Origin: a virus
Virus record (IMG/VR): IMGVR_UViG_3300048593_000456
Location: 1-26,513 of that record
DNA length: 26,513 nucleotides
Strand: one strand, 5' to 3'
Within the stretch, counting starts at the first letter, position 1; every line of letters starts with the position of its first letter. Both the position numbers and the translations under genes were made by a program. Below, one piece after another: positions 23,801 to 24,037 of this stretch. The notes beneath the pieces were generated by a model, which was not told where the DNA came from, ran no database searches, and saw only the letters and a program-made list of their open reading frames with translations.

Positions 23801-23918
23801 TGTGAGATAGCTTAATGGTAGAGCACGTAAAACTCTTGTATACTTTTTTACTATGTACGATAATACAAGATTAACCACTGTTAATGGCGTTGTGTAGGTT
23901 CGATTCCTGCTCTCACAG
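23801..23918 (+). ncRNA. tRNA-like Y RNA candidate A
   Basis: A tRNA frame of 118 bases: acceptor TGTGAGA (23801-23807) with TCTCACA (23911-23917), D arm GCTT-AATGGTA-GAGC (23810-23824), T arm GTAGG-TTCGATT-CCTGC (23894-23910), discriminator G. In place of the anticodon arm lie about 69 bases. Stem TCTTGTAT (23834-23841) pairs with ATACAAGA (23863-23870) around a 21-base loop holding TTTTTTACTATGTACG, then a second hairpin ATTAAC/GTTAAT (23870-23885). The D and T loops keep the bases for the tRNA elbow. It cannot decode. Its place before a Ro60 gene suggests a Y RNA that mimics tRNA. Confidence 0.75.
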
Positions 23919-23921
23919 CTT

Positions 23922-24037
23922 CCGCCTATGTTGTAATGGTAGCACAATAACTCAAGCATTGTTTTTTACTATGTACGTTTGATGTTTGATTAACTTTTTG
24001 GTGTAAAGCGGTCTAGGTTCGATTCCTAGTAGGCGGG
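23922..24037 (+). ncRNA. tRNA-like Y RNA candidate B
   Basis: Only 3 bases after candidate A. Acceptor CCGCCTA (23922-23928) with TAGGCGG (24030-24036), a short D arm TGT-AATGGTA-GCA (23932-23944), T arm CTAGG-TTCGATT-CCTAG (24013-24029), discriminator G. The insert has stem TCAAGCAT (23952-23959) with ATGTTTGA (23982-23989) and a 22-base loop holding the same TTTTTTACTATGTACG as candidate A, then GATTAAC. Stems differ from A but stay paired, and the loop is identical, the mark of a conserved RNA. No CCA encoded. Processing at both ends by tRNA-type enzymes is likely but not shown. Confidence 0.75.

What the first reader, a model, noticed from the sequence alone, without database searches (positions are those of the whole stretch)
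23834..23994. Covarying stems around an identical 16-base loop in the two tRNA-like RNAs
Stem TCTTGTAT/ATACAAGA in copy A and TCAAGCAT/ATGTTTGA in copy B differ at four of eight positions on the 5' side, yet remain fully paired (one G-U). Their loops share TTTTTTACTATGTACG exactly, and both stems are followed by TTAAC. Changed stems with kept pairing, and a kept loop, show selection on RNA structure. The loop is the best candidate for a protein-binding or base-pairing site.
Basis: seen in the sequence. Interest (0 to 1): 0.85.

Follow-up and report, generated by a model that had tools for sequence, protein, structure and literature searches.

The report
Phage Y RNAs in tRNA order
Just in front of its gene for the RNA-binding protein Ro60, this phage carries two small RNAs built like transfer RNAs whose anticodon arm is replaced by a likely Ro60-binding arm, and similar RNAs turn up beside Ro60 genes in other phages and bacteria, pointing to a second layout of a known RNA family.

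Summary
The RNAs (23801-23918, 23922-24037) are tRNA-like (7-bp acceptor stem, D and T arms) with this Ro60 arm in place of the anticodon arm, 27 nt before a Ro60 (TROVE) gene. Homologs lie beside Ro60 genes: 34 of 161 phage and bacterial loci carry 54 such RNAs; a model built without the window finds copy A at E 6.5e-17. Copy B scores no better than an ordinary tRNA and rests on its likeness to A. Known bacterial Y RNAs (YrlA) hold the same modules in circularly permuted order; here the order is that of tRNA itself. On a Ro60 tree the two orders interchange repeatedly (about 14 changes; one origin rejected, AU p 0.019). Most likely these are Y RNAs with tRNA-type ends, cut from the ro60 transcript by tRNA-processing enzymes. 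Processing and Ro60 binding are inferred. No description was found, but key Y RNA papers were unreadable.

The parts
23693..23720 (+). sigma70-type promoter TTGACA-N16-TATAAT, 12 of 12
   Evidence: consensus match only. Same site in L001
23732..23792 (+). possible third, minimal Y RNA in the leader: GGG...(9-12 bp stem)...AAC bulge...UUUUUGCCC, no tRNA-like module, Ro60-type helix at its ends
   Evidence: same fold predicted in window, L001 and L002 (z -1.5, -1.3, -2.9); likeness to the CUUGCCC strand is by eye
23801..23918 (+). RNA A: tRNA-ordered Y RNA (acceptor 23801-23807/23911-23917, D arm 23810-23824, T arm 23894-23910, discriminator 23918)
   Evidence: Rfam tRNA 43.5 bits with a 60-nt stretch in place of the anticodon arm; R1, built without window, 67.3 bits E 6.5e-17; descriptor
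23834..23870 (+). Ro60 arm of A: stem 23834-23841/23863-23870 around the Ro60-type helix
23844..23860 (+). degenerate Ro60-binding helix of A: UUUUUUAC-UAU-GUA-C-GA
   Evidence: aligned by R1 to the CUUGCC/GGCCGA strands of the relatives
23875..23887 (+). small hairpin CCA-CTGTTAA-TGG before the T arm
   Evidence: CCA/TGG kept in L001 and L002 with changed loops, by eye; RNAfold prefers another pairing there
23922..24037 (+). RNA B: second tRNA-ordered Y RNA (acceptor 23922-23928/24030-24036, D arm 23931-23947, T arm 24013-24029)
   Evidence: descriptor; R1 only 40.0 bits, equal to the best ordinary tRNA; same 16-mer and TTAAC as A
23952..23989 (+). Ro60 arm of B with the same 16-mer at 23962-23977
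24064..25638 (+). Ro60 (TROVE + vWA) protein, 524 aa
   Evidence: DVSGSM kept

Best explanation
RNAs A and B are Ro60-binding Y RNAs whose modules run in the order of a real tRNA: acceptor 5' strand, D arm, Ro60-binding arm in place of the anticodon arm, small hairpin, T arm, acceptor 3' strand. Known tRNA-mimicking bacterial Y RNAs (YrlA) are circular permutations of this layout, with their ends in the Ro60 helix and the acceptor closed by a loop. Inferred working: one promoter makes a leader Y-like element, A, B and the ro60 mRNA; host RNase P and a 3' tRNA end-processing enzyme cut A and B out at their acceptor stems; the phage Ro60 binds the arm through the short helix with the bulged C, while the tRNA-like body docks on a partner (in YrlA, PNPase) and gates or tethers it. 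Shown here: layout, homology, covariation, linkage to Ro60. Inferred: transcription, processing, binding, partner.
For: Ro60 gene 27 nt downstream of B. R1, from 31 relatives without the window family, finds A at 67.3 bits against at most 40.0 for the window's ordinary tRNAs. A2 structure: 19 of 21 pairs with double changes, 98.3% of cells paired, 0 of 500 shuffles as high, all slid controls lower. Ro60 helix in the relatives: T57 and G90 in 31 of 31 rows, bulged position 89 C in 27 and T in 4. Own arms pair better than swapped, 0 of 10000. Half-profiles H1 and H2 from permuted Y RNAs hit tRNA-ordered RNAs in swapped order: of 54, 39 were hit by both halves, 39 of 39 swapped; held-out permuted set: of 58, 39 were hit by both, 37 unswapped. 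In 80 genomes of one class, only the one genome with Ro60 over the cut-off has the RNA. In Chloroflexota L113, L120 and L125 the RNA lies between tRNA-Asn and tRNA-Ala with gaps of roughly 3 to 10 nt, which fits tRNA-type end processing. CCA follows the discriminator in 6 of 54 rows, two of them duplicates. No YrlA over the gathering cut-off in the 111.5-kb record.
Against: Copy B scores like an ordinary tRNA with R1 and its D stem departs from the usual one. The Ro60 helix in A and B is one pair shorter and lacks CUUGCCC/GGGCCGA. Folding energies do not clearly exceed shuffles. Nothing shows transcription, processing or binding. In tandem arrays with like acceptors (L140) the reading order is not unique.
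Confidence: 0.82

Rival explanations
1. They are working or decayed tRNAs carrying an intron or an overgrown anticodon arm.
For: Rfam scores A as tRNA, 43.5 bits; acceptor, D and T arms are intact.
Against: ARAGORN finds no tRNA there; the arm is kept with covariation and a common helix over 31 related rows; linkage to Ro60.
Confidence: 0.05
2. They are cis-acting leader structures of the ro60 mRNA (Ro60 binds its own leader and represses its synthesis), not free RNAs.
For: Only 27 nt separate B from the start codon; 44 of 54 related RNAs lie upstream of Ro60 on the same strand; no terminator found.
Against: Related RNAs lie downstream of Ro60 in 10 of 54 cases and inside tRNA operons.
Confidence: 0.1
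3. The tRNA-like shape is only a processing signal that frees a Ro60-binding hairpin; no partner docks on it.
For: The tRNA order gives ends that tRNA-processing enzymes would cut (inferred); location in tRNA operons.
Against: The same D-arm/T-arm module is kept in permuted Y RNAs, whose ends lie elsewhere, so it is unlikely to serve processing alone.
Confidence: 0.2

Closest known systems
YrlA-type bacterial Y RNAs (Rfam RF02553; Salmonella YrlA, PDB 6CU1)
   Same: Beside Ro60/Rsr genes; same Ro60 helix, GGTTAtC motif, small hairpin, T arm, acceptor stem, D arm
   Different: YrlA is a circular permutation of tRNA (PMC11472068 passages) with its large stem made by the 5' and 3' ends (PMC8394870 passages); here the ends are the acceptor stem and the Ro60 arm is closed by a loop
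Minimal Y RNAs (animal Y RNAs, D. radiodurans Y RNA)
   Same: Short helix with bulged C for Ro60 (PMC4726728 passages); the leader element 23732-23792 resembles this type
   Different: No tRNA-like module in animal Y RNAs (recalled); A and B have one
tRNA (Rfam RF00005)
   Same: Acceptor, D and T arms in the same order
   Different: No anticodon arm; a Ro60 arm stands in its place
tmRNA
   Same: Open acceptor stem with foreign sequence between the D and T regions (recalled)
   Different: No tag reading frame or SmpB link noted; much shorter insert

Membership tests
Bacterial Y RNA, broad sense | Gene next to a Ro60/Rsr gene | tested here: met
Bacterial Y RNA, broad sense | Ro60-binding helix with bulged C and conserved CUUGNCC/GGNCYG strands | tested here: inconclusive
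   clear in 31 relatives; degenerate in A and B
Bacterial Y RNA, broad sense | Binds Ro60 | not testable with these tools
   needs a binding assay
YrlA (RF02553) | tRNA-like module with D, T and acceptor arms | tested here: met
YrlA (RF02553) | Large stem formed by the RNA's own 5' and 3' ends (permuted order) | tested here: not met
   acceptor strands of A and of B pair 7 of 7 within each RNA; permuted model R2 at most 21.4 bits in the window
YrlA (RF02553) | Rfam gathering score of 69 bits | tested here: not met
   none over the cut-off; only hit 17.1 bits, elsewhere in the record
tRNA | Anticodon stem-loop | tested here: not met

The most novel reading that the evidence does not exclude
Bacterial and phage Y RNAs exist in two circularly permuted gene layouts. 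The tRNA-ordered one is undescribed, found across many phyla and phages, and has interchanged with the YrlA layout many times. Because its ends are tRNA ends, the RNA is matured by RNase P and may be CCA-tailed and even charged, giving Ro60 a ligand that the tRNA machinery can see.
Probability: 0.45. Interest if true: 0.87.

Novelty: new variant of a known kind. Interest (0 to 1): 0.74.

Why it matters
YrlA has been seen as a permuted tRNA mimic. RNAs with the same modules in true tRNA order, beside the same protein, point to descent from tRNA or repeated re-permutation, and make a clean natural test of whether the position of the RNA's ends matters for Ro60 and its partners. They also give a way to find Y RNAs that tRNA and YrlA searches misread: here ARAGORN and phage annotations called parts of some Y RNAs tRNAs.

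Tried and rejected
Rejected: the shared 16-mer as a widely kept loop. Rejected: fold energy as evidence. Rejected as false tRNA-ordered hits: 9 of the 66 candidates given, by acceptor mismatch or a competing permuted hairpin, then L081, L152 and L171 by my own judgement afterwards. The 66 candidates were hits of R1 of at least 55 bits plus four below that score taken from the descriptor (window B, L001 B, L002 B, L052 2015). Not given: the R1 hits at 55 bits or more L157, L172, L174 and L175 (L174, L175 and the others under 55 bits or judged permuted arrays by eye), and L153 2173 (54.6 bits), L121 2294 (53.2), L161 2383 (36.4). I relabelled L133 from both to tRNA-ordered, and kept L096 and L097 as tRNA-ordered although each also shows a degenerate permuted hairpin. 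Automatic counts before curation: viral 15 UN, 1 both, 28 PE, 37 none; genomes 16, 5, 42, 17. After: 15, 0, 29, 37 and 17, 2, 44, 17. 'None' includes 14 loci with under 400 bp held upstream of Ro60. The PE label rests on R2 at 55 bits or more, typed by hand, not checked for the hairpin in every locus; R2 hits in the tRNA-ordered arrays L052, L139, L140, L153 and L160 were left out as straddling two copies. Bits alone do not separate: one ordinary tRNA-sized hit reached 58.9 with R1. The strict motif rule missed the window's own RNAs and was used only for the shuffle control (31 in 1.13 Mb against 0 in 3.40 Mb of Markov-1 resampled sequence; a few of the 31, L155 and L166, I later judged false). 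PNPase-type domains (PF01138) and RtcB (PF01139) are not in the record. A megablast of window 14000-26513 against 50,697 phage records gave no match.

Literature: searches showed no description of a tRNA-ordered Y RNA in their listings. The primary papers (Chen 2014, Wang 2018, Sim and Wolin 2018, Sim 2020) are not held, so print status is open. Read as passages only: PMC11472068, PMC8394870, PMC4726728, PMC7824862.

Full report
Setting. The window belongs to a virus record of 111,526 bases. The gene at 24064-25638 encodes Ro60: TROVE E 7.8e-33 and vWA_Ro60 E 1.7e-36; phmmer finds Ro60 1yvp at 5.5e-83 and Rsr 2nvo at 1.2e-72. Two loci with 95-96% identical Ro60 were found, L001 and L002, both with RNAs A and B in front.

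The observation. The 5' strands differ at three positions, not four; three pairs changed on both sides and one became G-U. A stem of this size alone occurs in 3-7% of shuffles, and fold energies are unremarkable. L001 and L002 keep both stems unchanged, so A against B is one comparison; the strength comes from the wider family.

The molecules. A and B have 7-bp acceptor stems, D arms with GG, and T arms with TTCGATT. Rfam reads A as tRNA with about 60 nt in place of the anticodon arm; ARAGORN finds neither. Between D and T arms lie, by eye, a UAA.../...UUA base, the covarying stem, the 16-mer and a small hairpin.

Relatives. With 10 Ro60 proteins aligned I took the best 80 of 301 loci from viral contigs and the best 80 of 181 from one genome per species. 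A descriptor with open acceptor strands found the same layout beside many Ro60 genes. The tip of the arm reads CUUGNCC-loop-GGNCYGA: T57 and G90 in 31 of 31 rows, bulged position 89 C in 27 and T in 4. A published description of the vertebrate Ro60 site, a seven-pair helix with one bulged cytidine and three bulged bases opposite (PMC4726728 passages), fits this; the animal sequences themselves I only recall. In A the same place holds UUUUUUAC-UAU-GUACGA, aligned there by R1.

Two layouts. Other Ro60 loci, actinophages among them, carry RNAs with the same blocks in the order Ro60 strand, GGTTAtC, small hairpin, T arm, acceptor hairpin, D arm, Ro60 strand; Rfam YrlA hits several of these below its gathering score. 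That YrlA superposes on tRNA by circular permutation is known (PMC11472068 passages). Profiles of the two halves of the permuted RNAs hit 39 of 54 tRNA-ordered RNAs with both halves, all 39 in swapped order; of 58 held-out permuted RNAs, 39 were hit by both, 37 in the permuted order. Among 154 ARAGORN tRNAs only 3 had an H1 match of 50 positions or more; one is the 3' half of a tRNA-ordered Y RNA, one overlaps a permuted Y RNA, one is a weak 19-bit hit. Rfam reads the tRNA-ordered relatives as tRNA; its YrlA hits in such arrays straddle two copies.

Tests. A2, 31 RNAs without the window family: 21 pairs, 19 with double changes, 98.3% of cells paired, 0 of 500 shuffles as high, slid controls at 34-47%. 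R1 from A2 scores A 67.3 bits (E 6.5e-17) and B 40.0, the same as the best ordinary tRNA of the window; B therefore rests on likeness to A and on conservation in L001 and L002. Own arms pair better than swapped arms, 0 of 10000. In eight whole genomes all R1 hits of 60 bits or more lie at Ro60 loci, except three in a Polyangium genome that sit about 5 kb from a second TROVE frame. In 80 genomes of one class, one has Ro60 over the cut-off and the same one alone has the RNA; one positive is few, but there were no false alarms in 79.

Counts and history. After curation, 54 tRNA-ordered RNAs stand in 34 of 161 loci: 15 of 81 viral loci (window included) and 19 of 80 genome loci, two of which also hold the permuted form. 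Near-identical loci are counted apart. Loci were picked by likeness to the window's Ro60, so these are not frequencies in nature. On a Ro60 tree of 114 rows the two layouts need 14 changes, at least 4 forced by starred branches for the tRNA-ordered group, and one clade is rejected (AU p 0.019). It was a quick tree with long branches, and the root is unknown, so direction and the exact number are open.

How it may work. The locus has a perfect sigma70-type promoter, then an element like a minimal Y RNA with the same fold in three phages, then A, three bases, B, and 26-27 bases to ro60. In Chloroflexota L113, L120 and L125 the tRNA-ordered RNA lies between tRNA-Asn and tRNA-Ala, and CCA follows the discriminator in 6 of 54 rows, two being duplicates. 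Both fit release by tRNA-processing enzymes. Ro60 binding by the arm and partner docking by the body follow from what is known of YrlA (PMC8394870 passages) and are not shown here. The record shows no PNPase-type domain, so such a partner would come from the host.

Verdict. A real, structured pair of RNAs, best called Y RNAs in tRNA order: like YrlA in parts and place, unlike it in layout, and not a member of RF02553 by its own cut-off.

Noticed in passing
window 23732-23792: Possible third, minimal Y RNA in the leader, in end-to-end order without a tRNA-like part; same fold in L001 and L002.
   Followed up: partly
L001 3664-3858: About 200 extra bases between A and B with their own promoter-like site TTTACA-16-TATAAT at 3769-3796.
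   Followed up: partly
L032 5715-5803: Annotated tRNA-Leu(gag) of Gordonia phage Mareelih overlaps a YrlA-type RNA (R2 73.8 bits at 5737-5858; Rfam YrlA 52.1 bits).
   Followed up: partly
L026 2437-2513: Annotated tRNA-Arg(tct) of Microbacterium phage Magritte overlaps a permuted Y RNA (R2 79 bits at 2446-2567).
   Followed up: no
L125 793-919: ARAGORN calls the 3' half of a tRNA-ordered Y RNA tRNA-Met.
   Followed up: yes
G003:C11 139926-148510: Three tRNA-ordered RNAs about 5 kb from a second TROVE protein in an open frame of 1174 aa.
   Followed up: partly
window 20790-20884: tRNA-like stretch with a weak tRNA-Sec match, 26.8 bits, under the cut-off.
   Followed up: no
L031 5479-5535: Pistol ribozyme match, 56.8 bits, in the tRNA region of Gordonia phage GMA2.
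   Followed up: no
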